A DNA stretch of 64,000 nt, taken from Tomocerus qinae. Lineage: Eukaryota > Arthropoda > Collembola > Entomobryomorpha > Tomoceridae. The translations under genes and the position numbers were made by a program. The first letter of the stretch is position 1; every line of letters begins with the position of its first letter. The notes beneath the pieces are model-generated. The model was not told the origin of the DNA and did not search any database. It saw only the letters and a program-made list of their open reading frames with translations. Below, one piece after another: positions 3,201-33,072 of this stretch. The stretch lies in contig CM034546.1 of the NCBI GenBank assembly GCA_020055645.1, positions 111,383,375-111,447,374 of the forward strand, in the 5' to 3' direction.

Positions 3201-6200
3201 TTTTCTAAGCGTCCTAGTGACATCGCGGCCTAGTGCCATTATAGTTAATTGCGGACATTTGGTCCACCTATTTTAAATAAGCAAATTGTGTGTGTGTGTG
3301 CCCTTACGGGAATAAATTGTGTGAAAGGTAAAATACCCAGTTTACACTGACATATTTATTTTATCCTTACACATCATACATATCACGCACAGCATCATCG
3401 ATCATCACTGATCATTAGCAGTAGTTTGGCTGCAACAAAATAGACTTAACCCTTGACACTTCCACTGCCTGGGACACAAGACACAGCTGCACGCATTACC
3501 TAACCGTGGTAAACATTTTGGTCCTTCGTATGCCAGATCACTGACAGCAATCAGTGGTCTAGTGATTGAACAGTTTTTTTGTGTGCCTATGGACCTCTGG
3601 AAGTGAAAAGTGCCATTTTTAGACAATTAAGCATTGTCATTCCACAAATCAAGCCGCACGCCGCCGTTGGAACGGATACAAGTAAGCCTGTGTCATCTCG
3701 TCTCCAGTCGGTCACCTATCGTCAGTCGTCTCAGTCTCATCTCGTGTCACAGTGCCCCGTCCCAACAAGCAGAGATCCTTGAATCCCGCAAGATTCAAAA
3801 ATAAAAACATTGATGTCGGATTTTTAATATATTTTGTTAGTGTCAGTTCATAAAAATGAATTCACTAGTTAATAAACGTAGTGCACTCATCGCAAAGATT
3901 GACGTTCTGAAGCAGATCGTCGATCAACATTCTACTGCCCCCTCTGGATGTGCTAGATGTCCAACACCACCTTGAGAAGATCAAGGAACATGCAACAAAT
4001 AACGACAAGATATTTGATGAGATCGCCGACAAATGCAAAGCTGAGTCAGAAATCATGACTCATCATCTGGTCTACGACGCGGAAGATAAGAAGCTTGCAG
4101 CAATCAAGAAAGGACTGCTAATTATCTCAGCGACCTTCCCGTCCACGACAACTACAACAACAACTACTGCAACGGCCACACCTGCAAGTGCCGACATTAA
4201 ATTGCCGAAGTTGGAGCTGCCAACTTTCTCCGGAGAAAGTCATGAGTGGCTTTCTTTCCACGATCTGTTCGTTGCCAGCGTACAGAATAACGCCAAGCTC
4301 TCAGGAGCACAGAAGCTACAGTACCTGAAAGGTGCACTGAAGGATGAGGCTGCCAACCTCATCAAGAATATTACGTTGACCGACAGCAACTTCGACGTGG
4401 CCTGGAAGACACTCCAGACACGCTACGAAGATAAGAGAGAACTCATCCGCAGCCAGTTGGATCGTCTTCTCTCTCAGCCCAGCCTCACACAGGAGAACCC
4501 GACAGCTCTCCGCAAATTAGCAGACACGACGAGTGAATGCATCCAGACACTGGATGTCCTGAAGATTACGCCTGAAGAAACCAGGGACCTTCTCATCATT
4601 CACCTTGTCACCAAGAAAATCGACCAGGAGTCACGCCTACAGTGGGAGAAAAAGGTAAAATCAGATGCCATTCCCACCCTAAAGGAATTTTTGGAATTCT
4701 TAATTGAGCACGCACGAGTCACCGCCGCAGCCAAGATTGTCACCACTACACCGCAAGCCTGCAAGCCAAAGGGACAATCAGCGACTCAACCCAGCAAACA
4801 GTTTTCGTCTGCAGTGCACCACACTCACGCCGGGGAGTCTAGCCCCAAGAAACAAACATGCACGTTTTGCGGCGAAAACCACCACATTTTTACATGTACA
4901 GCATTTCGTGAACTAACCGTTGATGACAGAATCAATGGAGCCAAAAGCAAAGAGCTTTGCTTTAACTGCCTAGGGATTGGACACCGATCTGAACAATGCA
5001 AGAAGATACGATGTATCAAGTGTTCCAGCCCTCACAATCGCCTACTGCACAAGGAGAAAGCATCTAACCAGCATACAAGCACGCAACAGGAGGATACTAC
5101 TTCGGCGACGCCTCCCGAAGACCCTCCTAAATCTAACTTCTTCTCCACACAAGCCCAGAAAACCCAGCAAGTGCTCCTATCTACTGCAATAATTAAAGTT
5201 CGAGACAGCAAAGGATGTTTCCAACTCTGCCGTGCACTTCTGGACAACGGGTCGCAATGCTGCCTCATCACGAAGAAGTGCGCAACACGACTCGGTCTCA
5301 AGAAAAGACGAGTCAATATACCTCTGCACGGAATTTCAGGAATAGAAGCAGGAATAATTACGGAGAAAGCAGAAATCCTCTTCTTCCTGCCACAACGAGC
5401 AACCAACTTTCTCCATTGACGTCTTCGTTCAAGACAAGTTGACGTCCGACTTACCTGTTGCTCCACTCGCGGTCAAGTCATGGCCACATCTGGAAAGGAT
5501 CACATTGGCCGATCCTCTCTACCACCAGCCCGGAAAGATTGACATCATTCTGGGTAACGACATTTTTATGGATCTAATCATAGGCACGAAGCGGGGAGGG
5601 CCCTACTGGATCTCCACCAGCCTTGGAGACGCACATTGGATGGATCGTCGGAGGAAAAATCGACGACTCCCTCAGACCTGTCCCACCGCCATCAACTCCA
5701 CGACACCCAAAAAAGGAAAGTGCTGTTCTCACAGCCGCTGTCGCCTCCACTTCAGGAACTTTCACCGCCACAGCAACAACAGAAGCACTTTCCCCAACTA
5801 GCTCAGCAATCAACACGACAGAAGAAGATGTTGACGACAACTGCCTTTTCTGTCATCAAATGACACACTACCTACCTGACTGTCAATTCTTTTGGAAAGA
5901 ATCACGGATCCTTTTTGCAAGGCTCAACTGGATCCACCGAAGCAACTTTCCTGCAACACGGCCATCATTTTGGCAAGCAGCAACCACAGCCACTCCAAGC
6001 CTTGACGACTTTAGTGGCAACCCCGACATACGTCATCCCGCAACGGCGACGACAACTTGGCGTCAGAGAGCCACAGCTAGGCTCAAGTCGTTGCAAACTC
6101 AATTTTGGAACCAGCAGCAGCACCTCTTCACGTCAGCTCAAGTGAAAGTGTTGTAAAATATTTTTATTACTTCATGATATAGTTTTAATTCACTTCTATA

Positions 6201-9200
6201 GATTAATTTTTGCACGTATGCTCTTATGTCTCCACATATTTATTTTATTATAATGTTTCCGCATATGTATGTTGGTGAATCCGCATACATTATATTGTTT
6301 CCGCATATTTTCATTTTGAGCGTCCACATTAATTTTTATTATTACCTCATATTATTGTAGCTTGTAAGCAAATATTTCCTTTGTTTTGAAATTGGGAATT
6401 TCAAGGCGGGCAGTATGTTCAAGCACGTTTTGTAATTTTTATCTAGTAGTAAGTATGCATGTTTGTGTGAGTCAATTTAGTGTACTTTCCTCAATGTATT
6501 ATGACATTTTTGCTCACAATTTCTATATTTATTAACTTAATTGAATTTTGTTCTGATACGATTGTTCAGTATATTTTTAGCTATTTTTTGATACCTTACT
6601 TGCCCTCCTAGGTCAAGGTTCAAGGAATTTAAAATGGGGTGCTCCGTCATGTTAGGAGTAACCCATAATTTTCATGCATCCATCACAAGGCTGCATCCAT
6701 CACAATGCAGTGTAAGTGTAGCTGCATCCATCACAAGATGCGTGTATTTAAGCCTAAGCTCATTGAGCCGTGTAAATTAGTATAGACTAGTAACTAAACA
6801 TTGCGATGTAGTTTTTACATACCTAGCTATAAGAATCCAGCAATTTACCTACTAGAACCCAGCAACCTATGTTAAGCTTATGGATCTGGAACCTGCAAAT
6901 TCCAGCATCCATTCCTATTAAATTGTAATATAATTTAGCGCTAATATTAAATAATAAGCACATTTCTAAGCACGTCTAATCTAATACAGCGAACCATGTT
7001 CAAACCAGCCAGTCTTCTACGCGAGCTCCCAGAGTCAACACGACTAACTGCTCACCTGCGGCATTGTGCCAATATTTTCTAAGCGTCCTAGTGACATCGC
7101 GGCCTAGTGCCATTATAGTTAATTGCGGACATTTGGTCCACCTATTTTAAATAAGCAAATTGTGTGTGTGTGTGCCCTTACGGAAATAAATTGTGTGAAA
7201 GGTAAAATACCCAGTTTACACTGACATATTTATTTTATCCTTACACATCATACATATCACGCACAGCATCAACAACCATCATTGATCAGTGGCAATAGTT
7301 TGGCTGCATCAAATAGACTTAACCCTTGACACTTCCACTGCCTGGGACACAAGACACAGCTGCACGCATTACCTAACTGTGGTAAACATTTTGGTCCTTC
7401 GTATGCCAGATCACTGACAGCAATCAGTGGTCTAGTGATTGAACAGTTTTGTGTGCCTATGGACCTCTGGAAGTGAAAAGTGCCATTTTTTAGACAATTA
7501 AGCATTGTCATTTCACAAATCAAGCCGCACGCCGCCGTTGGAACGGATACAAGTAAGCCTGTGTCATCTCGTCTCCAGTCGGTCACCTATCGTCAGTCGT
7601 CTCAGTCTCATCTCGTGTCACAGTGCCCCGTCCCAACAAGCAGAGATCCTTGAATCCCGCAAGATTCAAAAATAAAAACATTGGTGTCGGATTTTTAATA
7701 TATTTTGTTAGTGTCAGTTCATAAAAATGAATTCACTAGTTAATAAACGTAGTGCACTCATCGCAAAGATTGACGTTCTGAAGCAGATCGTCGATCAACA
7801 TTCTACTGCCCCTCTGGATGTGCTAGATGTCCAACACCACCTTGAGAAGATCAAGGAACATGCAACAAATAACGACAAGATATTTGATGAGATCGCCGAC
7901 AAATGCAAAGCTGAGTCAGAAATCATGACTCATCATCTGGTCTACGACGCGGAAGATAAGAAGCTTGCAGCAATCAAGAAAGGACTGCTAATTATCTCAG
8001 CGACCTTCCCGTCCACGACAACTACAACAACAACTACTGCAACGGCCACACCTGCAAGTGCCGACATTAAATTGCCGAAGTTGGAGCTGCCAACTTTCTC
8101 CGGAGAAAGTCATGAGTGGCTTTCTTTCCACGATCTGTTCGTTGCCAGCGTACAGAATAACGCCAAGCTCTCAGGAGCACAGAAGCTACAGTACCTGAAA
8201 GGTGCACTAAAGGATGAGGCTGCCAACCTCATCAAGAATATTACGTTGACCGACAGCAACTTCGACGTGGCCTGGAAGACACTCCAGACACGCTACGAAG
8301 ATAAGAGAGAACTCATCCGCAGCCAGTTGGATCGTCTTCTCTCTCAGCCCAGCCTCACACAGGAGAACCCGACAGCTCTCCGCAAATTAGCAGACACGAC
8401 GAGTGAATGCATCCAGACACTGGATGTCCTGAAGATTACGCCTGAAGAAACCAGGGACCTTCTCATCATTCACCTAGTCACCAAGAAAATCGACCAGGAG
8501 TCACGCCTACAGTGGGAGAAAAAGGTAAAATCAGATGCCATTCCCACCCTAAAGGAATTTTTGGAATTCCTAATTGAACACGCACGAGTCACCGCCGCAG
8601 CCAAGATTGTCACCACCACACCACAAGCCTGCAAGCCAAAGGGACAATCAGCGACTCAACCCAGCAAGCAATTTTCGTCTGCAGTGCACCACAGCCACAC
8701 CGGGGAGTCTAGCCCCAAGAAACAAACATGCACGTTTTGCGGCGAAAACCACCACATTTTTACATGTGCAGCATTTCGTGAATTAACCGTTGATGACAGA
8801 ATCAACGGTGCAAAAAGCAAAGAGCTTTGCTTTAACTGCCTAGGGATTGGACACCGATCTGAACAATGCAAGAAGATACGATGTATCAAGTGTTCCAGCC
8901 CTCACAATCGCCTACTGCACAAGGAGAAAGCATATCAGCAACATACAAGCACGCAACAGGAGGATACGACTTCGGCGACGCCTCCCGAAGACCCTCCTAA
9001 ATCTAACTTCTTCTCCACACAAGCCCAGAAAACCCAGCAAGTGCTCCTATCTACTGCCATAATCAAGGTTCGAGACAGCAAAGGATGTTTCCAACTCTGC
9101 CGAGCACTTCTGGACAACGGGTCGCAATGCAGTCTCATCACGAAGAAGTGCGCAACACGACTCGGTCTCAAGAAAAGACGAGTCAACATCCCCCTGCATG

Positions 9201-12200
9201 GAATCTCAGGAATAGAAGCAGGAATAATTACGGAGAAAGCAGACATACTCTTCTCTTCCTGCCACAACGAGCAACCAACTTTCTCCATTGACGTCTTCGT
9301 TCAAGACAAGTTGACGTCCGACTTACCTGTTGCTCCACTCGCGGTCAAGTCATGGCCACATCTGGAAAGGATCACATTGGCCGATCCTCTCTACCACCAG
9401 CCCGGAAAGATTGACATCATTCTGGGTAACGACATTTTTATGGATCTAATCATAGGCACGAAGCGGGAGGGACCTACTGGATCTCCAACAGCCTTGGAGA
9501 CGCACATTGGATGGATCGTCGGAGGAAAAATCGACGACTCCCTCAGACCTGTCCCACCGCCATCAACTCCACGACACCCAAAAAAGGAAAGTGCTGTTCT
9601 CACAGCCGCTGTCGCCTCCACTTCAGGAACTTTCACCGCCACAGCAACAACAGAAGCACTTTCCCCAACTAGCTCAGCAATCAACACGACAGAAGAAGAT
9701 GTTGACGACAACTGCCTTTTCTGTCATCAAATGACACACTACCTACCTGACTGTCAATTCTTTTGGAAAGAATCAGAACGAAGTCAGCGGAAGTTTACCG
9801 AGAAGCGAAAGCTCTGCTTCTACTGTCTCGGAGCCAACTGCACGGATCCTTTTTGCAAGGCTCAACTGGATCCACCGAAGCAACTCTCCTGCAACACGGC
9901 CATCATTTTGGCAAGCAAGAAACCACAGCCACTCCAAGCCTTGACGACTTTCGTGGCAACCCCCGACATACGTCATCCCGCAACGGCGACGACAACTTGG
10001 CGTCAGAGAGCCACAGCTAGGCTCAAGTCGTTGCAAACTCAATTTTGGAACCAGCAGCAGCACCTCTTCACGTCAGCTCAAGTGAAAGTGTTGTAAAATA
10101 TTTTTATTACTTCATGATATAGTTTTAATTCACTTCTATAGATTAATTTTTGCACGTATGCTCTTATGTCTCCACATATTTATTTTATTATAATGTTTCC
10201 GCATATGTATGTTGGTGAATCCGCATACATTATATTGTTTCCGCATATTTTCATTTTGAGCGTCCACATTAATTTTTATTATTACCTCATATTATTGTAG
10301 CTTGTAAGCAAATATTTCCTTTGTTTTGAAATTGGGAATTTCAAGGCGGGCAGTATGTTCAAGCACGTTTTGTAATTTTTATCTAGTAGTAAGTATGCAT
10401 GTTTGTGTGAGTCAATTTAGTGTACTTTCCTCAATGTATTATGACATTTTTGCTCACAATTTCTATATTTATTAACTTAATTGAATTTTGTTCTGATACG
10501 ATTGTTCAGTATATTTTTAGCTATTTTTTGATACCTTACTTGCCCTCCTAGGTCAAGGTTCAAGGAATTTAAAATGGGGTGCTCCGTCATGTTAGGAGTA
10601 ACCCATAATTTTCATGCATCCATCACAAGGCTGCATCCATCACAATGCAGTGTAAGTGTAGCTGCATCCATCACAAGATGCGTGTATTTAAGCCTCAAGC
10701 TCATTGAGCCGTGTAAATTAGTATAGACTAGTAACTAAACATTGCGATGTAGTTTTTACATACCTAGCTATAAGAATCCAGCAATTTACCTACTAGAACC
10801 CAGCAACCTATGTTAAGCTTATGGATCTGGAACCTGCAAATTCCAGCATCCATTCCTATTAAATTGTAATATAATTTAGCGCTAATATTAAATAATAAGC
10901 ACATTTCTAAGCACGTCTAATCTAATACAGCGAACCATGTTCAAACCAGCCAGTCTTCTACGCGAGCTCCCAGAGTCAACACGACTAACTGCTCACCTGC
11001 GGCATTGTGCCAATATTTTCTAAGCGTCCTAGTGACATCGCGGCCTAGTGCCATTATAGTTAATTGCGGACATTTGGTCCACCTATTTTAAATAAGCAAA
11101 TTGTGTGTGTGTGTGCCCTTACGGAAATAAATTGTGTGAAAGGTAAAATACCCAGTTTACACTGACATATTTATTTTATCCTTACACATCATACATATCA
11201 CGCACAGCATCAACAACCATCATTGATCAGTGGCAATAGTTTGGCTGCATCAAATAGACTTAACCCTTGACACTTCCACTGCCTGGGACACAAGACACAG
11301 CTGCACGCATTACCTAACTGTGGTAAACATTTTGGTCCTTCGTATGCCAGATCACTGACAGCAATCAGTGGTCTAGTGATTGAATAGTTTTGTGTGCCTA
11401 TGGACCTCTGGAAGTTAAAAGTGCCATTTTTAGACAATTAAGCATTGTCATTTCACAAATCAAGCCGCACGCCGCCGTTGGAACGGATACAAGTAAGCCT
11501 GTGTCATCTCGTCTCCAGTCGGTCACCTATCGTCAGTCGTCTCAGTCTCATCTCGTGTCACAGTGCCCCGTCCCAACAAGCAGAGATCCTTGAATCCCGC
11601 AAGATTCAAAAATAAAAACATTGGTGTCGGATTTTTAATATATTTTGTTAGTGTCAGTTCATAAAAATGAATTCACTAGTTAATAAACGTAGTGCACTCA
11701 TCGCAAAGATTGACGTTCTGAAGCAGATCGTCGATCAACATTCTACTGCCCCTCTGGATGTGCTAGATGTCCAACACCACCTTGAGAAGATCAAGGAACA
11801 TGCAACAAATAACGACAAGATATTTGATGAGATCGCCGACAAATGCAAAGCTGAGTCAGAAATCATGACTCATCATCCGGTCTACGACGCGGAAGATAAG
11901 AAGCTTGCAGCAATCAAGAAAGGACTGCTAATTATCTCAGCGACCTTCCCGTCCACGACAACTACAACAACAACTACTGCAACGGCCACACCTGCAAGTG
12001 CCGACATTAAATTGCCGAAGTTGGAGCTGCCAACTTTCTCCGGAGAAAGTCATGAGTGGCTTTCCACGATCTGTTCGTTGCCAGCGTACAGAATAACGCC
12101 AAGCTCTCAGGAGCACAGAAGCTACAGTACCTGAAAGGTGCACTAAAGGATGAGGCTGCCAACCTCATCAAGAATATTACGTTGACCGACAGCAACTTCG

Positions 12201-15200
12201 ACGTGGCCTGGAAGACACTCCAGACACGCTACGAAGATAAGAGAGAACTCATCCGCAGCCAGTTGGATCGTCTTCTCTCAGCCCAGCCTCACACAGGAGA
12301 ACCCGACAGCTCTCCGCAAATTAGCAGACACGACGAGTGAATGCATCCAGACACTGGATGTCCTGAAGATTACGCCTGAAGAAACCAGGGACCTTCTCAT
12401 CATTCACCTAGTCACCAAGAAAATCGACCAGGAGTCACGCCTACAGTGGGAGAAAAAGGTAAAATCAGATGCCATTCCCACCCTAAAGGAATTTTTGGAA
12501 TTCCTTATTGAACACGCACGAGTCACCGCCGCGGCCAAGATTGTCACCACCACACCACAAGCCTGCAAGCCAAAGGGACAATCAGCGACTCAACCCAGCA
12601 AGCAATTTTCGTCTGCAGTGCACCACAGCCACACCGGGGAGTCTAGCCCCAAGAAACAATCGTGCACGTTTTGCGGCGAAAACCACCATATATTCACATG
12701 TGCAGCATTTCGTGAACTAACCGTTGATGACAGAATCAATGGAGCCAAAAGCAAAGAGCTTTGCTTTAACTGCCTAGGGATTGGACACCGATCTGAACAA
12801 TGCAAGAAGATAAGATGTATCAAGTGTTCCAGCCCTCACAATCGCCTACTGCACAAGGAGAAAGCATCTCAGCAACAAACAAGCACGCAACAGGAGGATA
12901 CTTCTTCGGCGACGCCTCCCGAAGACCCTCCTAAATCTAACTTCTTCTCTACACAAGCCCAGAAAACCCAGCAAGTGCTCCTATCTACTGCCATAATTAA
13001 AGTTCGAGACAGCAAAGGATGTTTCCAACTCTGCCGTGCACTTCTGGACAACGGGTCGCAATGCTGCCTCATCACGAAGAAGTGCGCAACACGACTCGGT
13101 CTCAAGAAAAGACGAGTCAACATCCCCCTGCATGGAATCTCAGGAATAGAAGCAGGAATAATTACGGAGAAAGCAGACATACTCTTCTCTTCCTGCCACA
13201 ACGAGCAACCAACTTTCTCCATTGACGTCTTCGTTCAAGACAAGTTGACGTCCGACTTACCTGTTGCTCCACTCGCGGTCAAGTCATGGCCACATCTGGA
13301 AAGGATCACATTGGCCGATCCTCTCTACCACCAGCCCGGAAAGATTGACATCATTCTGGGTAACGACATTTTTATGGATCTAATCATAGGCACGAAGCGG
13401 GAGGGACCTACTGGATCTCCAACAGCCTTGGAGACGCACATTGGATGGATCGTCGGAGGAAAAATCGACGACTCCCTCAGACCTGTCCCACCGCCATCAA
13501 CTCCACGACACCCAAAAAGGAAAGTGCTGTTCTCACAGCCGCTGTCGCCTCCACTTCAGGAACTTTCACCGCCACAGCAACAACAGAAGCACTTTCCCCA
13601 ACTAGCACAGCAATCAACACGACAGAAGAAGATGTTGACGACAACTGCCTTTTCTGTCATCAAATGACACACTACCTACCTGACTGTCAATTCTTTTGGA
13701 AGAATCAGAACGAAGTCAGCGGAAGTTTACCGAGAAGCGAAAGCTCTGCTTCTACTGTCTCGGAGCCAACTGCACGGATCCTTTTGCAAGGCTCAACTGG
13801 ATCCACCGAAGCAACTTTCCTGCAACACGGCCATCATTTTGGCAAGCAAGAAACCACAGCCACTCCAAGCCTTGACGACTTTCGTGGCAACTGCGACTTA
13901 CGTCATCCCGCAACGGCGACGACAACTTGGCGTCAGAGAGCCACAGCTAGGCTCAAGTCGTTGCAAACTCAAATGTGGAACCAGCAGCAGCACCTCTTCA
14001 CACGTCCAGTGAAAGTGTAGTAAAATATTTTTATTAATTCACATTATAGTTTTAAATTACTTTTATAGATTAATTTTTGCACGTATGCTCTTATGTCTCC
14101 ACATATTTATTTTATTATAATGTTTCCGCATATGTATGTTGGTGCATCCACATACATTATATTGTTTCCGCATATTTTCTATTTTGTGTTTCCACAATAA
14201 TTTTTATTATTACCACATAATATTGTAGCTTGTAAGCAAAAATTTTCTTTGTTTTGAAATTGGGAATTTCAAGGCGGGCAGTATGTTCAAGCACGTTTTG
14301 GAATTTTATCTAGTAGTAAGTATGCATGTTTGTGTGAGTCAATTTAGTGTACTTTCCTCAATGTATTATGACATTTTTGCTCACAATTTCTATATTTATT
14401 AACTTAATTGAATTTTGTTCTGATACGATTGTTCAGTATATTTTTAGCTATTTTTTGATACCTTACTTGCCCTCCTAGGTCAAGGTTCAAGGAATTTAAA
14501 ATGGGGTGCTCCGTCATGTTAGGAGTAACCTATAATTTTCATGCATCCATCACAAGGCTGCATCCATCACAATGCAGTGTAAGTGTAGCTGCATCCATCA
14601 CAAGATGCGTGTATTTAAGCCTAAGCTCATTGAGCCGTGTAAATTAGTATAGACTAGTAACTAAACATTGCGATGTAGTTTTTACATACCTAGCTATAAG
14701 AATCCAGCAATTTACCTACTAGAACCCAGCAACCTATGTTAAGCTTATGGATCTGGAACCTGCAAATTCCAGCATCCATTCCTATTAAATTGTAATATAA
14801 TTTAGCGCTAATATTAAATAATAAGCACATTTCTAAGCACGTCTAATCTAATACAGCGAACCATGTTCAAACCAGCCAGTCTTCTACGCGAGCTCCCAGA
14901 GTCAACACGACTAACTGCTCACCTGCGGCATTGTGCCAATATTTTCTAAGCGTCCTAGTGACATCGCGGCCTAGTGCCATTATAGTTAATTGCGGACATT
15001 TGGTCCACCTATTTTAAATAAGCAAATTGTGTGTGTGTGTGCCCTTACGGAAATAAATTGTGTGAAAGGTAAAATACCCAGTTTACACTGACATATTTAT
15101 TTTATCCTTACACATCATACATATCACGCACAGCATCAACAACCATCATTGATCAGTGGCAATAGTTTGGCTGCATCAAATAGACTTAACCCTTGACACT

Positions 15201-19943: not shown

Positions 19944-21683
19944 TTATGTGCTTTCGATACTGGAAGCTCGATGATTTTCTGCAATTGAAGGACTACTTAT
20001 CGATGTAATATTGTAAACCAATCTTTCCTTGCTGTAGAGAATGTCACTTCTATGTATTTTATATTTATAAATGCCTACTACAACTAAAGCAATCATTATT
20101 AACGTTTGTATAGAAAATAGGACCCAAAGAACTGTTGACGAGCTTGATTCTGAGTGCAATCCTTCTTGAATTGTTAAGTGGAGTTTCTCCGAGTTTGGGT
20201 CTACATCTGTTTTAATCATATTTGTATCCGAGAGAACAATTTCATTTTCGACAGTCTTTATATCGTTCAGTCGATTTTCTTTGATAAAATGTACAGGTAT
20301 GACTTGATTTATGATTAACTGATTCATGCAAGGTTGTTGGACATGATATGATTCAGAATGAAACATTAGGACACAATTACATGGAAGGCGAACTTCTAGT
20401 GCTCCAAAATCTTGGTGGTTTAATAAGCGATTTGGTTTATCATCGCATTTTACTAGTATCCCAACGATAGAATTTCCAGTCACAATGTAAGTGTCTGAAG
20501 AAACTCGGAGAAATATTGGAATTTTAGGGCCGTGGTCATTTAATGTAAGACAGTCGTAACTGCAATGTTTTCTAACGCTTGTTAAGGATTCCGAGAAAAA
20601 GGAACTGACACACATATCTGGGAGTTGGCTATCCGTATTGTCAATCACTTGACATAACGAACGAGATTTGCATGTTGTTTTTCCTAAAGAACCCGATGTG
20701 GCATCGTACAAAACCTTCTCAGGATCCATCTTAATTTGGCACAGTTTCTTTTCTTTCCCATCAGAGTATATAAATGGAACAGGTTTAATTTTATACATCT
20801 TTTGCTTAAATCGTTTTCGAACAGGTATTAAGATCCTCACCAAAAATTTTCCAATGTCTGTAAATGAACAATCAGCAATGGGCATTTTGTAATAAATCGA
20901 AGTCTCATTAATAGGTACAGATGGAGTCAAGTTGAGTAACGACATTTGCTTTTCAACTGTGGCCAAGTCATTTGAGAAGTTTGCAATTTTAATTAACGAG
21001 CTGGGAATATTTTTATTATTGCAAGTTATTTCTGCCTGATTCCACCGAGTTTTCTCAACCCAGTAATTGAACATTAAGGAATTTTGATGGGATGCCAAAG
21101 CATTTATGTAGTAAGCTGGTCCAATGCGATCGCTTGAAGTCATCTTATTTGAAAACTCTTGTTCGAATTTCTGATTCATGGTTTTATATATCTGTTTGAT
21201 GTTGTACACGTAATCTTCAATAGAACGAGTGAACAACCCATATTTTCCAACCGGGCATTTTTTCAACTTTTCTATATGGATTTCTAATTCCTTTTGTGAA
21301 GTCAGCGTTCCAGGAAAATGTGGCTCGATGGAATTACATAAATCCTCTGGAAGAGATACTGGAGCAGAAAATAAAATGCCACTTCTATTTTGAGGCAGTA
21401 TATCGTTCTTGAAGCGTTCAATGAATTTTTCAAAGTGAAAGAATACTGGGCAACTGTAGCTCGGCGAGAACTCGTCTGTTTCACATTTTCCTCTCCAATC
21501 CCGTAATGTTATATCCATGTTGCCCCAAACGGGTAGATTGAATTCATAAATCATAGGAATGAAAGAACTGTAGTATACCGGAGCATCTAATTCTTGTTTG
21601 TAGAGCCCATAAGTCAATTTAACAGGGTACTCATTTTCGGCAGAATAGACTGAGGGAAGTAACACCATGAGACCCGTCAACAT
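19944..21683 (-). CDS. Stand-alone envelope glycoprotein-like (F/Env-type) membrane protein, 579 aa
   Basis: Intact single-exon ORF for a type I membrane protein. It has an N-terminal signal peptide (MLTGLMVLLPSVYS), a long Cys-containing ectodomain with N-glycosylation sequons, one transmembrane helix at about 517-539 and a 40-residue cytoplasmic tail. Layout and local patterns (YGLYKQELDAPVYY near the N-terminus; KMYKIKPVPF in mid-ectodomain; late Cys pairs) recall baculovirus F-like and errantivirus envelope proteins. This is a judgement from pattern, not an alignment. I see no clear furin site followed by a fusion peptide, so fusion activity is doubtful. No LTR, gag or pol flanks it. A 58-nt intron (21695-21752, GTAAGT...TTTACAG) appears to lie in the 5' leader, suggesting a captured cellular gene. 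An unrelated insect membrane protein is the alternative. Confidence 0.5.
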   Translation of the reverse strand: MLTGLMVLLPSVYSAENEYPVKLTYGLYKQELDAPVYYSSFIPMIYEFNLPVWGNMDITLRDWRGKCETDEFSPSYSCPVFFHFEKFIERFKNDILPQNRSGILFSAPVSLPEDLCNSIEPHFPGTLTSQKELEIHIEKLKKCPVGKYGLFTRSIEDYVYNIKQIYKTMNQKFEQEFSNKMTSSDRIGPAYYINALASHQNSLMFNYWVEKTRWNQAEITCNNKNIPSSLIKIANFSNDLATVEKQMSLLNLTPSVPINETSIYYKMPIADCSFTDIGKFLVRILIPVRKRFKQKMYKIKPVPFIYSDGKEKKLCQIKMDPEKVLYDATSGSLGKTTCKSRSLCQVIDNTDSQLPDMCVSSFFSESLTSVRKHCSYDCLTLNDHGPKIPIFLRVSSDTYIVTGNSIVGILVKCDDKPNRLLNHQDFGALEVRLPCNCVLMFHSESYHVQQPCMNQLIINQVIPVHFIKENRLNDIKTVENEIVLSDTNMIKTDVDPNSEKLHLTIQEGLHSESSSSTVLWVLFSIQTLIMIALVVVGIYKYKIHRSDILYSKERLVYNITSISSPSIAENHRASSIEST

Positions 21684-24600
21684 AAAAACCTTCCCTGTAA
21701 ATTATAATTTATTAAAACATCACTGAAAATTAGTAAAATCACTTTGACTTACCATTCGTCTACTGCCTGACCGAAATTAAGCAATACATGTTAAGAATAT
21801 TAAGCTCATGCAAAACGCTGTAATAATGTGTTCAATTTGCAACAAAAAATTTATAGATTTCTTTAACCTAAACTTTTTAACAAATTGATATTATCGTTCT
21901 TACATCTTTTTTGTCCCGAGTCGTTGAAAAACATTTTTGGCATAACTGGATCACTTTTCATTTTCAATTTATATTTGGAATTTTGTATTTACTTTCAATT
22001 GCAACCTATATTGAAGTCGGTAATTTGACTTCAATAATTGGCTTGTCCACTTGTCTATACTTACATTCAACACGTTCGACGTTTGGATTTGTTTTGCTGC
22101 AGTTTGTATGCGAATGTTTTCGTTATTACTCTTATTACAGTACAAGTGCATTAAACATTAAGTTAAAAAGCAGAAAAATCGTTGTTTTTATAAAAACTGA
22201 GTTAATCGATATTCCAAGAGTGAACAATAATTAGGACAGTGCTCAGATTGGGATTGTATTAAACGAGTACTTATACGATTTGTGGCAGGACTGGTGACTG
22301 CGCTCTAACTGGTCTTATTACAGCCACATTTTTAGTATATCAATATGGAGTGAAGTGTGTAATAGTGTTGAGCAAAACTTTTACATGAACTTTATCTCAA
22401 CGGAAGAAGGAAGTCAGCAGCTGTGTACTTAATATGTACACCAACCTTGGACTATTCGATCCCTGCTTCTGTCTATTATCTTTGTTAAGACAATCTTAAT
22501 CAGTCCCTTTTTCGAATTATCTGGAGACCACACTTTTGTTGTTTATGGCAGGCCACAACATGTAAAAAATAAACTGTTTACTGCTTGTATGACATCGAAT
22601 GAAGTGGAAGGAAATATCTTATGTCTGTTATTGACAAGTCTTTGTTTTCATGGTTAATTATTTACTAGTAGTGTGCTATCTTATACAAAGCTAACAGTAC
22701 AACAAGCTTATTAATGTGCAGTCAAGTACAAGTCTAGTTACAATTAAAAACTGAATTCTGATTTTAATGTGTCATTCATGGTTTAGATATGACATTATTT
22801 TCTATTAATGCTTTGCTGCAGATAAGTGAAGGATGATGCATTTATTTATTGACGGTGATTCAATGACAATAGGATGTAGGCCGGATACCGAACACAGAAC
22901 CCAGAAAATGTAGCTATACTAATTTTAAGTACCTAACCGCTGCACCATTCGTGATTACTACAGATACACAAAGTTATACAAGTCATAATTTTAATTTTTA
23001 CCCTATTATGTGTATAAGTAGTTCGTGTTCATCGTGGTAATTGTTGTATCATGAATCATGATAAAATTGAATCATACTATTTACATACAGCGTATAATAC
23101 TCGGTATTGTTATATGTTGTTGTTGTCAACTGTGCATGTACATGCATTAAGCCAGAATGTTTGTAAAATTGAAAATGCTTAATCAACTCAGAAAAAGGAT
23201 GCGGTTGAGTATGGTTCGTGTCATGTCATGAATGACGGCTTCTGTTGTAGTTTGCACATCATTGAATCTCTTAACTTGGTTGTAAACATTGTATTTAGAT
23301 ATTTAGCTAGAGATTTTTAAAGCTCATTAATGACAGTGGCTTACATGATGACTAATTCTAAAGCTCTAATCATGAGTCAGGTCAATCCCTTCTGAAATGA
23401 CAACTTGGATCCAATAAGAATTCTGTTTGGTTGAGTTTCATAGGATAAAGAGGTTAGTTACGGAAAATGTTATATACATAGTATCAGCAATGAAACAATT
23501 GTTCAAGTTGCAGAAACAAGTTAAGTAGAAAGAAGAGCTGGTGCGCTTATGGTGTTCCTTTTTATCTTCCTGATTGCGTAAACCAAAATAAGTAAATACT
23601 ACGGCCTACCCAATGAAATTTTGATCACATTATCACAGAATTGCTACGCTAGCAGATATAATAATAAGGAGTATAAGGAGTTAATAAATTGACTAATCAT
23701 CTCTTATCTGTTAGTATTATAATAATACTGAATTACAATACAACCATCGAATTTTATTCTAATTTGCCACTGTTGTACTTTTAAGTTAGGGTAATTCAGT
23801 CAATTCTAAGTATTTGTAGGTGAACAGAACAGTAACTTCAATATCCCACTTGCCTAGCTAGTCTACACTGTTTATGATATTAGAAACAAAATGCTGTCTT
23901 TTAGATGTAGTCCTAGTCAACAACTTCCATGTAAAGCTTTTGTTAGTCATACTAAATTCTATACTTTGCATATTGTACTTCATTGACTCTGTACTGTCAG
24001 GGCTTGTTTTATACCGATAGTGGCACAATATGAAATAAGATGTTAGTGGGTTGGTAAGTTATGAATACATCTAAACCTATTTCTTTAGCTCCTTTGCATA
24101 CCCTCCGAATAATACGTAAACGATATCTATATCCGTATTTCTTGATATAATGTATGTCTCACATATCTCATCAATATGTAATTTAACTAATTTCAATTTT
24201 GTTTTGTCGATTTTGACACTAAAGCCAAAATTCGTTATTTTACACTCTTTTTCAGATATGCTTAAATATTTGAGCACACGCATAATCGAATGGTATAAAG
24301 ACCATTTTCATAAACATCAATATGCAGATAGACCGTGAAAGTAGGAATCTATCTGCGACTGGTATTCATTCAATAAATGCTAAACTGTTTGTTCGTTGAG
24401 CAACATTTGAGTATGTGATGCCCTTTGATTACATCTTTAGTTAATTTTGTACATATGTAAAAATAACCGTAGCCAAAAGCACGGTTTACGCAAATTATTG
24501 CATCGACAAATGATTTCACATTTAGGAATCCGCAGATAGATATCAGTTGTTTGTGATTTACAATTTCAATGCATGCTAAGTATGACCCTATTTCTGCTGA

Positions 24601-26021: not shown

Positions 26022-28810
26022 CTAAGGTTGATAACGTCGATGGTGCAACTGGACAAATAATTTTTCTAGTAATAATAAGAATAAAGAAATTCCCCAGCCT
26101 ATACATAACGTAAGAAATGCAGTAAAAACATCATTTAATCCAAGATTTTCTCTGTAGCTTGTTGTTTTCTTTGTGCATTTCACTAAAGTTGCTAGATAGT
26201 AATTATTTATATATCTACTGTTCAGTCCTCGCTCCATGACTATTAGCAATCTGAAAAGAGAACACAAAATTAATTACACACAAATTCATCAAATATACTA
26301 TTTAGCTATGTAAGCTACATAAAATGTATATTAGGCAGATATTTGCTACTGAAGTACTATAAGTTTTAGTTTGTACTTTGAATTGAAAGCTTCCTTAAAC
26401 GGACATCGCTTTTTAACGTAGAATCCACTAGTTAGTACAACTTTCCCTAAAGGAACTTTGGAGAAGACATTGCAGATTGTCTTGCCTGAATAATTCAATT
26501 CTCTTGCAGATAGACATATGTTGTCTAATGTAGTGAGGAACATACTACCCCCGTTGGTAATTCTTTTTGTTGCATCAACATCACTGGTGTAACTATATTC
26601 ATCTTCTTTGGCATGGTACATTTCAGATGGATCATCCTAAACGAAACAGTAAAATCATGCTTTATTTAAAGCCAGGTTGCATTTTGCTTGGGATAGGATT
26701 TATAGCTTAGTGACCCAAAATGGAAAACCAAGTTATATTTAGGTCATTTCAATTTCTACTCATCTATTTTTGTACATACTATCATTTTATACCTCTAAAT
26801 TTGAATTCGTCAAAGGTGAAACTTACATTATCTAGAAACGACGAGTAGAACATTGATGGATCGGAAATCTCCATGAAATTGTTTTCAACCAAATCCGCCA
26901 AAGAATTAATTGGCAGAGTCTCTTGTGTTAGTGAAGAAATTATAGCTGCAGAGTAGGATGTGAAAGTAATCATTGACATGTATAAGCCGGTTAAGAACAC
27001 AATTCGCATGGCCATTGTCTTGGGATTTGTATAAAAACCTGCATTTGAGTACCAAAATCAATTAAAAGTTAATCCCGGCGTATAATACCGCATCGAGTTA
27101 TTTTTTTAGTCTTTGAAAAGTGACATACTCCGCTGTCCAATGACACTGACAGCCCACAAATTAGTTTCTTCCAAAGGCCACATGATTTCATCTTCGTAGT
27201 CAAATCTTTGCAATTGTCTTTCCAAAATTCCGATAATGAATACACAAAATATTATGAGAAGCCAAGCTACAAAAAGCGTGGCCCATAAATCCGTTTTGAA
27301 AGGCTCATGAAAAATGTTCCTTACGGAACTTGAAGGTGGTTGAAGGAAGAAAGCGTAGACTCTGGCCAATTTTAAAACGAATTAGTAATTATCGTTCCTT
27401 AAAATTGATATGAAATTGTAAAACATTTTTGAGAGCACAGACTATGAGAATACAATACCTATCAATTCCCAACGGTAGAAGAGGAGTTAAATGATATACA
27501 TAGGATAATATCGTATAAGAATGAAGAATGGAAACGTCAGCTTCGTCTTCTATTAGTTGACGACCAATTCCTATCACTGTGCCGTTTTCTATTGCGATAT
27601 CTTGACTTCCTTTAATAGCACGAATACTATACAATACAAACTGTTTAACATTATTCGAAAACAAGATTGACGGTAGTAAATTATCTGAATGCAAGTTTCT
27701 TAAATAAATTACTAGCAGCTTACGAAAAGTTGAGAAGATGCTTAATGTCCCATAAATCATATACCCCTAGACCTCCAATAAATTCCACAATTTCGTTTTG
27801 ACTGTAAGTGGCCACAGGAGCATCAACCTCACTGTCCTAAATATAGCATTAGAGGTTCTGTTAATTTAAAGTTAAATAATTTAGGATTATGCTCCGTATA
27901 TTTCCCACCACAGCAGTTGCAGTAATAACCGCTCCTTTGAAATCATTCCTTCTTAAACTAGTTGTGGAAAAGATATTGCAGTCCAATTTGCTTTCATTTC
28001 TAAGATACGGAACTTTCTGTACGAAAGAGATATTTTTAATTGAGTACAACTCCAATATCGTTGTTTTAAGAGACCCGTCTGGCAAAAGAGCTTGATAAAG
28101 GATGAAGACGTAGTCATTTAGGAGGAAGTTCATTGCGAGGGGCTCCAATGATTTTTCAAATTTATTTTGTTCTAGTCTTGAACCCAAAATGGAAGGCCAG
28201 ATCACAATTATCAACAGTGTTGAATTATAAGTCACAGGATTTGTAGCAAGCAATCGTCTCTGCAAACCAAATTATTATGATTTATGGTGTCATCAATTCT
28301 TCATTGTCAGGTTATCTTAACCATTGCCAATTCATAAAATTATGCTTGTAGGTACTTGGACTGCCAATGTTTGTAGTTCAGATTCATTTTCTGGAGTGAA
28401 AATTAATATCGTTTTCTTGAACTGAATTAAATTAAAATCGTTCATTTGATGATAACAACTATCCACAGGGACCTTGGCCATTTGGAATCCATCCGAAATA
28501 GCTCTAATCTCTATTGAACACATACAATAAAATGGACACTGTGTGGTATACATATTAAATCCCTTATATAGAGTATATTCAGATATCAGGACATTCAGAT
28601 TTCGAATTGTTTTCAACAATACCACTTACCTAAACCCTCATGGGTTGTAGAACCACAAAAAATGACGTCAACACCAATGAAATGATTAGTGCATGTGGTA
28701 GATGTACTGGAACTTGATGCGAATAGGAACGGCTCAAATAATTGGGCTTTAGTGACAATATATTCAGCAATTAAGTATAGCAATATTGCAATCCATGTTA
28801 AAATTGTCAT
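26022..28810 (-). CDS. Divergent ionotropic receptor (IR) gene 2, nine exons
   Basis: Ionotropic receptor paralogous to IR gene 1. Exons in gene order: 28810-28630, 28510-28356, 28259-27909, 27836-27724, 27626-27439, 27359-27129, 27038-26827, 26636-26377, 26250-26022, together about 639 residues in frame. Exon 1 gives the signal peptide. Exon 3 has RRNDFKGAVIT before S1, exon 6 starts with AFFLQPP and M1, exon 7 has M2 with TSYSAAIIS (SYTANL counterpart), and exon 9 has M3. Exon number and nearly all phases match IR gene 1. The junction between exons 5 and 6 is the least certain: donor GTGCTC is weak, and the acceptor could be two bases earlier. Expected in the membrane of chemosensory neurons; ligand unknown. 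Confidence 0.85.
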
Positions 28811-30778: not shown

Positions 30779-31683
30779 ATGGAGGAAGAAGAAAAAACAA
30801 TTTGTTCATCCGATTTGACAACCTGTGAGAAAGCGTCTTTTGGGATGTCTTGATTTTGGTTTCCGGAAGCACTCTTCGGTGTCGCTGAGGGTGTTTCATG
30901 TACCTATGTAGGCTTTACTGGAGGAGATTCAAAAAATCCTACTTACCGCAGGCTGTAAATCCAATTATTTTAATAGTCTTAATCAAAACTACAATGATTA
31001 ATATTTATTTTTATCTCTTCTTTTGAATAAGCAGAGGAAATCATACTGAGACCGTGGTTGTCGAATACGATCCGAAGATCACTTCCTATCAAAAAATGCT
31101 AGAAATATTCTGGAGAAATCATGACCCTTCTTCAAAATGTTCCAGACAAGTACGGCTTATCTGTTTATCAGTTATTCATCTTATTTAGAATTCAGTACAA
31201 AAATCAGAATTTAATACTCTGTTGACAATTCTAGTATATGTCCGCTATATTTTATCATTCGATGGAACAAAAGCAAGCTGCCATGAAATCTTTGGAGAAT
31301 GAGTCAGCTATAAAAACTGTGAATACAAGAATATTACCAGCGAAAGAGTTCTATTTCGCTGAAGAGTAAGTCACTCATTACCAAAAAAGTACTACTTTTT
31401 CACTTGTTAACGTTATTAAAGACTTTAGGAATATAATCAAAAATATATTTTGTGATTTAGCTATCACCAAAAATACATGCTGCAGAGATACCCTTATGTT
31501 TTGGCTCAGCTCGATATTGAACCGGGTCGTCCACTTATAGAATCTTATATAGCGACAAGATTAAATGGATACGTGGCAGGCTTTGGAACAATTGAATCTT
31601 TTGAAAAGGACAAACTAAGTTTACCACCAAATGTTGAAAGCTACGTGAGAAATCTAATCACCAAAAATAATAAGCGAAAATAG
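30779..31683 (+). CDS. MsrA: Selenoprotein methionine-S-sulfoxide reductase A (MsrA), Sec at the catalytic site
   Basis: Reduces methionine-S-sulfoxide in proteins and free methionine. Exons 30779-30954, 31035-31149, 31235-31365 and 31461-31683 join to 214 residues, normal for MsrA. The catalytic motif, GCFW in most family members, reads Met-Ser-TGA-Phe-Trp here: the in-frame TGA at 30851-30853 is residue 25, exactly where the nucleophilic Cys belongs. Downstream family signatures are intact: FPEALFGVAEGV, YVGFTGG, PTYR followed by HTE, VEYDP, FWRNHDP, SAIFYH. Everything after the TGA stays open through three further exons, which a real stop would not explain. A SECIS-like element lies at 31874-31963 in the 3' UTR. 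I read TGA as selenocysteine. The start ATG gives a short acidic N-terminus (MEEEEK), so the protein is probably cytosolic. Confidence 0.9.
30851..30853 (+). other. In-frame TGA recoded as selenocysteine
   Basis: The codon falls at the catalytic nucleophile of MsrA (residue 25), preceded by FGMS and followed by FW. Selenocysteine at this position is known for MsrA in some algae, bacteria and invertebrates. Recoding here depends on the downstream SECIS. Confidence 0.85.
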
Positions 31684-32478
31684 CAAAATTAAAATAGTAT
31701 TTGTGACATTTATTTTGTAGTTGTAGATATTATGTTAAACATTATGCTTATTGGTCTCACAATCTCATGTTTGTAAAGCCATTATGTACGCTCACAAAAC
31801 TAAACTAGTGCCTAGCTAGATAAACGTCACTTTGTCACTATTCCCTATATGCCGAGAAAACGCATTTTTTCAGAACTTTCACGAGCAAAACGAAATGACG
31901 AATTAACTTCCAAACCTTATCCAAAGGATTAGTAATTCCGATGCAAAATATTGCCGTGAAGTTTGGTTAGAGTTTAAGATTTTTTAAACTTGTACCTGTT
32001 CTAAAATAAGTAATTAAAGGACAAAAAATAATGGCTACCATAAAACTGCCCTCTAATCTTCATTTCCTTTATTATGGTTAAAAATTAAATTCTACTGTTC
32101 ATGAACTACCTTTACACATTCTCATACCATTACAACCAAGCTGTATAAAACAAGGCGATGACATTCACTAAAATAAATGAGAATACTGACAGATTTAGTA
32201 GAAACCCAGCAGAAATAATCCTTGCTTTAGCGGGAGTTTAGGAAGAGACATTGGAAATAAAACATTAGGAGGACTAAAAAATAATATTTTCAGTTTTGCA
32301 ATCGCTTGCATTTAACATATTTAACAAGTCTCTCTTGCGGATTGTGAGCTGTATAATCGTATCTAAATAAATGGTAACATAAAGTTTGGGAAAAGGTTTG
32401 TTAAGTTTTTTATGATAATATTACTTTACGTACATTTATATTTAGCTAAAACCCTTTATATTCTTTGAATTTTTTCAG
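31684..32478 (+). other. MsrA 3' UTR and downstream spacer
   Basis: Holds the SECIS element (annotated separately), then AT-rich sequence. A short ATG-started frame at 32158-32241 (28 codons) has no identifiable donor or homologue and is not called as a gene. Confidence 0.5.
31874..31963 (+). promoter_or_regulatory. SECIS element in the MsrA 3' UTR
   Basis: Folding by eye gives the full eukaryotic SECIS plan. Helix I: AACTTTCACGAGCAA (31874-31888) with TTGCCGTGAAGTT (31951-31963), 13 pairs with two single-base bulges. Internal loop on both sides. Non-Watson-Crick quartet: ATGAC (31895-31899) opposite CGAT (31939-31942). Helix II: GAATT/AATTC, ACT/AGT and TCC/GGA, 11 pairs with small bulges. 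Apical loop opening with AAA (31912-31914); a CCTT/AAGG mini-stem inside it is possible, as in form II. It starts 190 bases after the stop codon. It would recruit SBP2 and the Sec elongation factor. Confidence 0.85.
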
Positions 32479-32567
32479 CCAAAAACCAACATTGGGCACT
32501 ATTATTTCTATTAGTTGGTATTTGGATTGGGCTTCGACCCAACATTCGTGGTGATCCAAATTAATCG
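32479..32567 (+). other. Candidate coding exon upstream of the NCBP2AS2-like gene
   Basis: Flanked by TTTTTCAG and GTAAGT. One frame reads a short hydrophobic segment (HWALLFLLVGIWIGLRP) and stops with TAA at 32562-32564, five bases before the end of the exon. It would be the tail of a small membrane protein whose first exon I could not place, with an intron in its 3' UTR, or the 5' leader of the next gene. Confidence 0.4.
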
Positions 32568-32832
32568 GTAAGTGTCAAGTAAAATTATTATACGCAATAA
32601 TTCTGTTATAATTTTGAATTTAGGTACGATACAGTACGTTTCGTTCTAATTTCTTATCTATTCCTATTTTGCTATTACTGAGTAATTATGTATGCACAAA
32701 TGTGTTATTGCTAAATATGTTAGAAATCCTAGAAATCCTATGAGAAAGAAATTATAGACGCATTGGTCACGTCATCCAATTTTTCTAGCTTCTCTGGACA
32801 CTGAAAGGCGGGTCAAAGAGTCGTTTGTAGAG

Positions 32833-33072
32833 ATGGTGCTCCGAATCCTGATGCGATATTTAGCAAATAATCCTCAACTTATTGACAGATTGGCAAACTC
32901 ATACCCTATTCGTCGCGCAGCTCAATTAACTGTATACCTTTTTCATCGGTCGAAAGCAGTTATGGAAGACCACAATGTTAAGGGCAGAGCTTTAAAATTC
33001 AAAGGAAAATTTACAGAGGAGATGAAAAAAGAGTGGGAAAAATTGCATGGTGGAGGACCAGGTCCAAAATAG
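32833..33072 (+). CDS. NCBP2AS2-like small conserved protein
   Basis: 79-residue ORF starting MVLRILMRYLANNPQLI and containing SYPIRRAAQLT, the pattern I know from human NCBP2AS2 (MVLRRLL...PIRRAAQLT). The molecular function of the family is poorly defined. The C-terminus is basic with a Gly/Pro end (GGGPGPK). The ATG is in good context after TTTGTAGAG. An upstream exon (32479-32567) with a donor pointing to this region may share the transcript. Confidence 0.8.
   Translation: MVLRILMRYLANNPQLIDRLANSYPIRRAAQLTVYLFHRSKAVMEDHNVKGRALKFKGKFTEEMKKEWEKLHGGGPGPK

What the first reader, a model, noticed from the sequence alone, without database searches (positions are those of the whole stretch)
30779..31683. 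MsrA with selenocysteine at the catalytic position
Seen: an otherwise intact four-exon MsrA has TGA exactly at the catalytic Cys codon, and all downstream family motifs remain open. Known: most animal MsrA enzymes use Cys, and Sec-MsrA is reported only from scattered algae, bacteria and invertebrates. Inference: this arthropod makes a selenoenzyme MsrA, implying a working Sec machinery and probably higher catalytic rate. I cannot confirm whether a hexapod case has been described.
Basis: partly seen in the sequence, partly recalled or inferred. Interest (0 to 1): 0.92.

Follow-up and report, generated by a model that had tools for sequence, protein, structure and literature searches.

The report
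Springtail selenocysteine methionine-sulfoxide repair enzyme (MsrA)
This springtail gene very probably builds selenium, as the rare amino acid selenocysteine, into the active site of a protein-repair enzyme; such enzymes were already known in crustaceans, ticks and centipedes, so it is a new member of a known kind that extends it to six-legged arthropods.

Summary
In detail: a four-exon MsrA gene (30779-31683, GT-AG introns, 214 aa) has TGA at 30851-30853, exactly at the catalytic codon. The TGA is best read as selenocysteine (Sec): a SECIS-like hairpin lies about 190 nt after the stop (31873-31962; 0 of 400 flank shuffles as good), and the genome has three tRNA-Sec genes, SepSecS, eEFSec and an SPS2-like gene with in-frame TGA. 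The animal is a springtail. Sec-MsrA is already reported from Daphnia, Ixodes, a centipede and other invertebrates, with insects stated to have only Cys forms. What I add: a second Sec-MsrA with its own SECIS, and three relatives without Sec (Ser, Cys, Lys) and without a significant SECIS; the Ser and Lys copies also lost the active-site Glu. Weak points: no expression data; SBP2 untested; Rfam does not call the window SECIS, though it gives the sister copy's a sub-threshold match; the scanner was written after I had seen the hairpin. New member of a known kind, moderate interest.

The parts
30779..30954 (+). MsrA exon 1 (start ATG, catalytic TGA, FWFPE motif)
   Evidence: splice model; homology
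30851..30853 (+). in-frame TGA = Sec25, the catalytic position
   Evidence: aligns with the catalytic Cys16 of 4u66
31035..31149 (+). MsrA exon 2 (active-site Glu64)
31235..31365 (+). MsrA exon 3 (Gln97 is the last residue of exon 2, Tyr98 the first of exon 3)
31461..31683 (+). MsrA exon 4 (His143, Tyr146, C-terminal helical domain PF20939; TAG stop)
31873..31962 (+). SECIS-like element in the presumed 3' UTR; core A-TGA-C at 31895-31899, 3' GA of the quartet ending at 31941, AAA at the head of the apical loop
   Evidence: NOT called by Rfam

Best explanation
The gene is a functional selenoprotein MsrA. The UGA at codon 25 is decoded as selenocysteine under direction of the 3'-UTR SECIS (in animals through SBP2, eEFSec and tRNA-Sec; general knowledge). 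The selenolate attacks methionine-S-sulfoxide held by Phe26, Trp27, Tyr56, Glu64, Tyr98, His143 and Tyr146, giving methionine and an oxidised Sec that a thiol reductant (thioredoxin or glutaredoxin; which one is unknown) reduces again. Shown: codon, gene model, SECIS-like element, active-site residues, family membership, tRNA-Sec and three protein factors of the Sec pathway. Inferred: actual Sec insertion, enzyme activity, rate advantage, reductant.
For: TGA exactly at the catalytic codon of an otherwise intact, spliceable gene. The best SECIS candidate of 81 in the window, both strands, lies about 190 nt after the stop; 0 of 400 flank shuffles match it, and 55 of 600 whole-window shuffles (one strand) have one as good anywhere, i.e. 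0.0014 expected per kb per strand. Internal controls among the five members of this subfamily in the genome: both TGA copies have a strong candidate (0 of 400 shuffles each); the three non-TGA copies do not (80, 203 and 31 of 400). Three tRNA-Sec genes at 76-77 bits against a cut-off of 47, anticodon TCA; SepSecS; an SPS2-like gene with TGA at its Sec site; eEFSec. Equivalents of CoMsrA Phe17, Trp18, Tyr47, Glu55, Gln89, Tyr90, His137 and Tyr140 are kept. Window against L019 after the TGA: pN 0.244, pS 0.938 over 185 codons.
Against: Rfam's SECIS model does not call the window element, although it gives a sub-threshold hit on the L019 one (30.2 bits, gathering 35). The scanner was written after I had seen the window element by eye, so its statistics lean towards it; L019's element was found with it afterwards. 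The two Gly of the GCFWG motif are Ser24 and Phe28 here, as in the other rows with FWFP. No RNA or protein data. SBP2 was not tested. pS is saturated, and pN/pS covers both lineages, not the window branch alone.
Confidence: 0.92

Rival explanations
1. A recently inactivated copy: TGA is a plain stop in a decaying paralog, the real function being carried by the L019 Sec-MsrA or the Cys-MsrAs.
For: The genome holds a second TGA+SECIS copy (L019) and Cys-MsrAs, so the window copy may be dispensable; its sister L016 has Ser at the catalytic codon; Rfam does not call the window SECIS.
Against: Intact splice sites and frame for 189 codons after the TGA; the named active-site residues are kept; a SECIS-like element is still present; end branch shorter than that of the Ser sister (0.34 against 0.66).
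Confidence: 0.05
2. Functional UGA readthrough without Sec, as proposed for insect SPS1-UGA.
For: Such a case is described in Hymenoptera and in two paraneopterans, the latter with complete Sec machinery in the same genome, so machinery alone does not exclude it (PMC4561486, passages).
Against: SPS1-UGA lacks a SECIS (same passages); the window gene has a SECIS-like element, and the position is the redox residue.
Confidence: 0.02
3. Sequencing error for TGC/TGT (a Cys-MsrA).
For: A single base would do it; no reads were available.
Against: The FWFP context marks rows that read W (57 of 65) and no Cys row (0 of 44); a SECIS-like element is present; the paralog L019 has the same TGA.
Confidence: 0.01

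Closest known systems
Sec-MsrA of non-insect arthropods (Daphnia pulex, Ixodes scapularis, Strigamia maritima; PMC4244043, section 22 read)
   Same: Same enzyme family, Sec at the catalytic position; a SECIS downstream is reported there for each Strigamia selenoprotein gene
   Different: Here in a springtail (hexapod), with two Sec copies in one genome and Ser, Cys and Lys relatives beside them
Selenoprotein MsrA of Clostridium oremlandii (CoMsrA; PMC4333827, passages). I take the best PDB matches, 4u66, 7c13 and 4lwj-4lwm, to be its structures; one search shows no organism
   Same: Catalytic plus C-terminal helical domain; Phe17, Trp18, Tyr47, Glu55, Gln89, Tyr90, His137 and Tyr140 have identical equivalents (1.5e-39)
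   Different: GCFWG is SUFWF here. The bacterial enzyme has no Cys besides the catalytic residue; the window protein has four (my count). The Sec-insertion signal here is of the eukaryotic, 3'-UTR kind
Insect MsrA of the same subfamily (cockroaches, termite, beetles, louse, wasp, midge)
   Same: PF01625, in most of them with PF20939
   Different: Cys at the catalytic position and no FWFP context
Insect SPS1-UGA (PMC4561486, passages)
   Same: In-frame UGA at an ancestral Sec site
   Different: No SECIS at that gene; a SECIS-like element is present here

Membership tests
MsrA (PMSR, PF01625) | catalytic domain over the curated cut-off | tested here: met
   128.4 bits against 23.7
Selenoprotein MsrA with helical domain (PF20939) | C-terminal helical domain | tested here: met
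   28.7 bits against 23.7, profile positions 9-31 of 51
Selenoprotein MsrA with helical domain (PF20939) | active-site residues equivalent to CoMsrA Phe17, Trp18, Tyr47, Glu55, Gln89, Tyr90, His137, Tyr140 | tested here: met
   Phe26, Trp27, Tyr56, Glu64, Gln97, Tyr98, His143, Tyr146
Selenoprotein MsrA with helical domain (PF20939) | GCFWG (GUFWG) motif in full | tested here: not met
   SUFWF: both Gly replaced, as in other animal-type rows with FWFP; not required for the animal Sec-MsrA rows
Eukaryotic selenoprotein | in-frame UGA at the redox position | tested here: met
   30851-30853
Eukaryotic selenoprotein | SECIS element downstream of the stop codon | tested here: met
   own scanner: 0 of 400 flank shuffles; fold z -2.37 and -2.79. 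By Rfam not met
Eukaryotic selenoprotein | genome encodes tRNA-Sec, SepSecS, SPS2, eEFSec | tested here: met
   Controls over the cut-off: tRNA-Sec 5 of 14, SepSecS 3 of 14, selD 2 of 14, eEFSec 0 of 14. The SPS2-like exons on C9 lie under the selD cut-off one by one; only the C3 copy passes it
Eukaryotic selenoprotein | genome encodes SBP2 and PSTK | not tested
   PF01248 was asked for SBP2, unanswered; PSTK was not asked
Eukaryotic selenoprotein | Sec incorporated in the protein | not testable with these tools
   needs 75Se labelling or mass spectrometry
SPS1-UGA-type non-Sec readthrough | no SECIS at the gene | tested here: not met
   a SECIS-like element is present, with the Rfam caveat

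The most novel reading that the evidence does not exclude
One springtail genome holds a graded series within one selenoenzyme subfamily: Sec+SECIS (window, L019), Ser without SECIS (L016, sister of the window gene), intronless Cys (L001) and intronless Lys (L004). The Ser and Lys copies also have Gln for the active-site Glu while keeping open frames, so they may have become non-catalytic methionine-sulfoxide-binding proteins (sensors or chaperones) descended from a selenoenzyme.
Probability: 0.25. Interest if true: 0.62.

Novelty: new member of a known kind. Interest (0 to 1): 0.42.

Why it matters
It puts Sec-MsrA in a hexapod. If the insect Cys genes descend from the same ancestral Sec-MsrA, as PMC4244043 argues, the change to Cys did not happen at the base of hexapods but later. 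My trees do not prove that descent: they group the insect Cys rows with a mite's Cys row and, also with other Cys rows and the W rows with FWGP, not beside the springtail rows. The same genome offers Sec, Cys, Ser and Lys members of one subfamily, a natural experiment on what selenium adds and how it is lost. It also shows how standard annotation loses such genes: the Orchesella cincta record omits the stretch around the catalytic residue and the Folsomia candida record starts downstream of it.

Tried and rejected
Pseudogene, non-Sec readthrough and sequencing error were considered and rejected for the reasons in the rival explanations. Rfam on the window found no SECIS; kept as counter-evidence. 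An alignment of the SECIS candidates of window, L019 and the SPS2-like gene was of no use (57% mean column identity, helices not in register). Four own genes as one clade (window, L019, L016, L001; L004 left out for its long branch, 2.46): rejected (p-AU 0.0014), so I do not claim that the Cys copy L001 derives from the window gene. The exact tie between the window/L016 pair and L019 is unsettled: sister with support 86, 81/29 with other rows between. Species name: not reached (mitochondrial COX1 was considered but not searched). DNA of other springtails: not tried (by the tool descriptions metagenome scans are capped at 0 and genome contigs is bacterial and archaeal), so conservation of TGA in orthologues rests on proteins that read W at this position (51 of the 120 database rows aligned), which I take, without proof, to be TGA read as Trp. 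The listings of nine paper searches (several list only part of their papers, e.g. 12 of 580 and 15 of 30) show no report of a springtail Sec-MsrA; the library lacks most subscription papers. Structure prediction was not run.

Full report
What is there. Reading 30779-31683 on the + strand gives a four-exon gene with GT-AG introns of 80, 85 and 95 bp, a 645-nt frame, a TAG terminator and a single internal stop, TGA at 30851-30853. An in-frame stop lies upstream and the ATG at 30779 is the first after it. The protein (214 aa with residue 25 = U) matches PF01625 (128.4 bits) and PF20939, 'Selenoprotein methionine sulfoxide reductase A, helical domain' (28.7 bits), both over their cut-offs. The best solved relatives are MsrA chains 4u66, 7c13 and 4lwj-4lwm (1.5e-39 to 4.1e-38). 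PMC4333827 (passages) describes the Clostridium oremlandii selenoprotein MsrA (CoMsrA), whose structures I take these to be. Residue 25 falls on its catalytic Cys16; Phe17, Trp18, Tyr47, Glu55, Gln89, Tyr90, His137 and Tyr140 correspond to identical residues Phe26, Trp27, Tyr56, Glu64, Gln97, Tyr98, His143 and Tyr146. Not all is the same: the two Gly of the GCFWG motif are Ser24 and Phe28, as in the other FWFP rows.

Whose DNA it is. Sidekick exons on the minus strand (about 37.8-46.7 kb; ORFs) are 73% identical to Orchesella cincta, 70% to Folsomia candida and 68% to Allacma fusca; the other named arthropods among the 120 rows listed reach at most 58% (two unnamed rows reach 73%). The window is therefore from a springtail, a hexapod that is not an insect in the narrow sense. 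The species was not identified. The assembly has 334 Mb in 115 contigs.

The SECIS. Reading the sequence after the stop by eye I saw a hairpin with an A-TGA-C / C-GA-T core, AAA at the start of the apical loop and a long lower helix at 31873-31962. A scanner that I wrote afterwards ranks it first of 81 candidates in both strands of the window (40 and 41). In 3'-flank shuffles 0 of 400 are as good; in whole-window shuffles 55 of 600 have one as good anywhere on the strand scanned, 0.0014 per kb (1 of 20 in the first trial). Single-strand folds have z = -2.37 (97 nt, 4 of 200 shuffles as good) and -2.79 (90 nt, 3 of 200). Because the scanner was written with this element in view, its better test is elsewhere in the genome. 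The other TGA-bearing MsrA, L019, has a still better candidate (-23.6; 0 of 400), which Rfam's SECIS_1 model also matches over its full length at 30.2 bits, E 0.022, under the gathering score of 35. The three relatives without TGA have none that is significant (L016 80 of 400, L001 203 of 400, L004 31 of 400). Against: Rfam lists no SECIS in the window at gathering threshold nor in 31684-33000 at E up to 10.

Sec machinery. The same genome has three tRNA-Sec genes (76.4-76.9 bits, gathering score 47; 5 of 14 control genomes pass that score) that ARAGORN also calls tRNA-SeC, anticodon TCA, and SepSecS in four pieces on C5 (best 6.8e-35). It has an SPS2-like gene on C9 with TGA at its Sec site (FTELKG-TGA-GCKLPQ, L030). 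Its exons match selD one by one at 28-53 bits, under the whole-protein cut-off of 125; that it is SPS2 rests on the motif and is my reading. A SECIS-like candidate lies about 480 nt after its last matched exon; it is the second best of the L030 strand in the scan, was not shuffled, and Rfam does not call it. eEFSec is present (63.5 bits, cut-off 27, profile 1-84 of 119; no match in the 14 controls). SBP2 was asked for twice without an answer. PMC5644144 (passages) reports six tRNA-SeC and four SECIS in another springtail, Holacanthella, without naming selenoproteins in the passages seen.

The gene family in this genome. Two searches agree on seven MsrA loci. Two are ordinary Cys-MsrAs (L017, L018). 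Five are of the helical type: the window gene (TGA), L019 (TGA, five exons, one GC-AG intron), L016 (TCG, Ser, introns kept, 5' end not resolved), L001 (TGC, Cys, intronless) and L004 (AAA, Lys, intronless, one residue inserted before it). The Glu55 equivalent is Glu in the two TGA copies and the Cys copy, and Gln in the Ser and Lys copies; L004 has also lost the Tyr47 equivalent. The window gene thus looks like a working copy and L016 and L004 like non-catalytic ones. In a 50-row tree the window gene and L016 are sisters (100/99), inside a 15-row clade with Orchesella (99/97); L001 lies just outside it (93/88), and forcing window, L019, L016 and L001 into one clade is rejected (p-AU 0.0014), so the Cys copy is older or of other origin. 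Between window and L019, pN is 0.244 and pS 0.938 over the 185 codons after the TGA (differences by codon position 66, 33, 118): constraint on the part that a plain stop would leave untranslated, though pS is saturated and both lineages are included.

Relatives elsewhere. In 170 database proteins (the 120 listed of the 784 hits, and the 50 new ones among the 120 listed of 2283) the position reads W followed by FWFP in 57 of 65 rows with W, and FWFP follows in 0 of 44 rows with Cys; 54 rows had no match and 7 matched elsewhere. I read the W rows as TGA translated as Trp by gene callers; that is inference. Annotated records of known Sec-MsrA carriers are cut or garbled at this spot (Daphnia pulex, Amphimedon, Nematostella), as are Orchesella and Folsomia, while cockroaches, a termite, beetles, a louse, a wasp and a midge have Cys.

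Place in what is known. [quoted passage not shown] PMC3473315 (passages) lists it in Amphimedon, Trichoplax, Nematostella, Capitella and Branchiostoma. A springtail case is therefore an extension within a known kind. The listings of my searches show no report of it, but they are partly capped and the library lacks most subscription papers. The 20-fold rate advantage of Sec is published for the Clostridium enzyme (PMC4333827, passages), not measured here. Verdict: supported, new member of a known kind; the five-member series is the more interesting part.

Noticed in passing
L016 (G000:C1:137813500-137818500), minus strand, exons 2806-2992, 2517-2580, 2321-2435, 2001-2131, 1670-1907: Intron-bearing MsrA sister of the window gene with Ser (TCG) at the catalytic codon, Gln for the active-site Glu and no significant SECIS: a likely pseudoenzyme derived from a selenoprotein. 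Its 5' end is not resolved.
   Followed up: partly
L001 1435-2121 (C2:1.61 Mb) and L004 1300-2142 (C2:1.88 Mb): Two intronless helical-type MsrA frames 0.27 Mb apart, one with Cys (FGMNCFWAPE), one with Lys/Met (FGMSMKFWFSE).
   Followed up: partly
L019 (G000:C4:10715000-10722000), minus strand, 3618-2555; SECIS 2402-2333: Second, more conserved Sec-MsrA with TGA, a strong SECIS candidate and one GC-AG intron.
   Followed up: yes
L031 (C3:48325500-48331000) minus strand, position 2162 of the reverse complement: SPS1-like copy beside a 430-aa open frame, with TGA where the intron-bearing SPS1 (L032) has CGA (Arg); the scan of this strand gave only weak SECIS candidates.
   Followed up: no
window 3911-5419, 7712-10096, and 11652-12134 with 12186-13667 (+): Three very similar head-to-tail ORF sets (by eye), the middle one with DUF1759 and a sub-threshold aspartyl-protease match (the others were not scanned): apparently retrotransposon gag-like copies.
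   Followed up: no
window 19944-21701 (-): Open frame of 585 aa with no Pfam match.
   Followed up: no
window 2252-2560 (+) and 26782-27057 (-): Ionotropic-receptor-like pieces (Lig_chan just below its cut-off); neighbouring ORFs look alike by eye but were not all scanned.
   Followed up: no
P0096, P0097, P0103, P0110: Rows on a branch with Cys rows that read W in 'GWFWGPD', possibly bacterial Sec-MsrA read with TGA as Trp; a GUFWG/H motif is described for bacteria (PMC13188914, passages).
   Followed up: no
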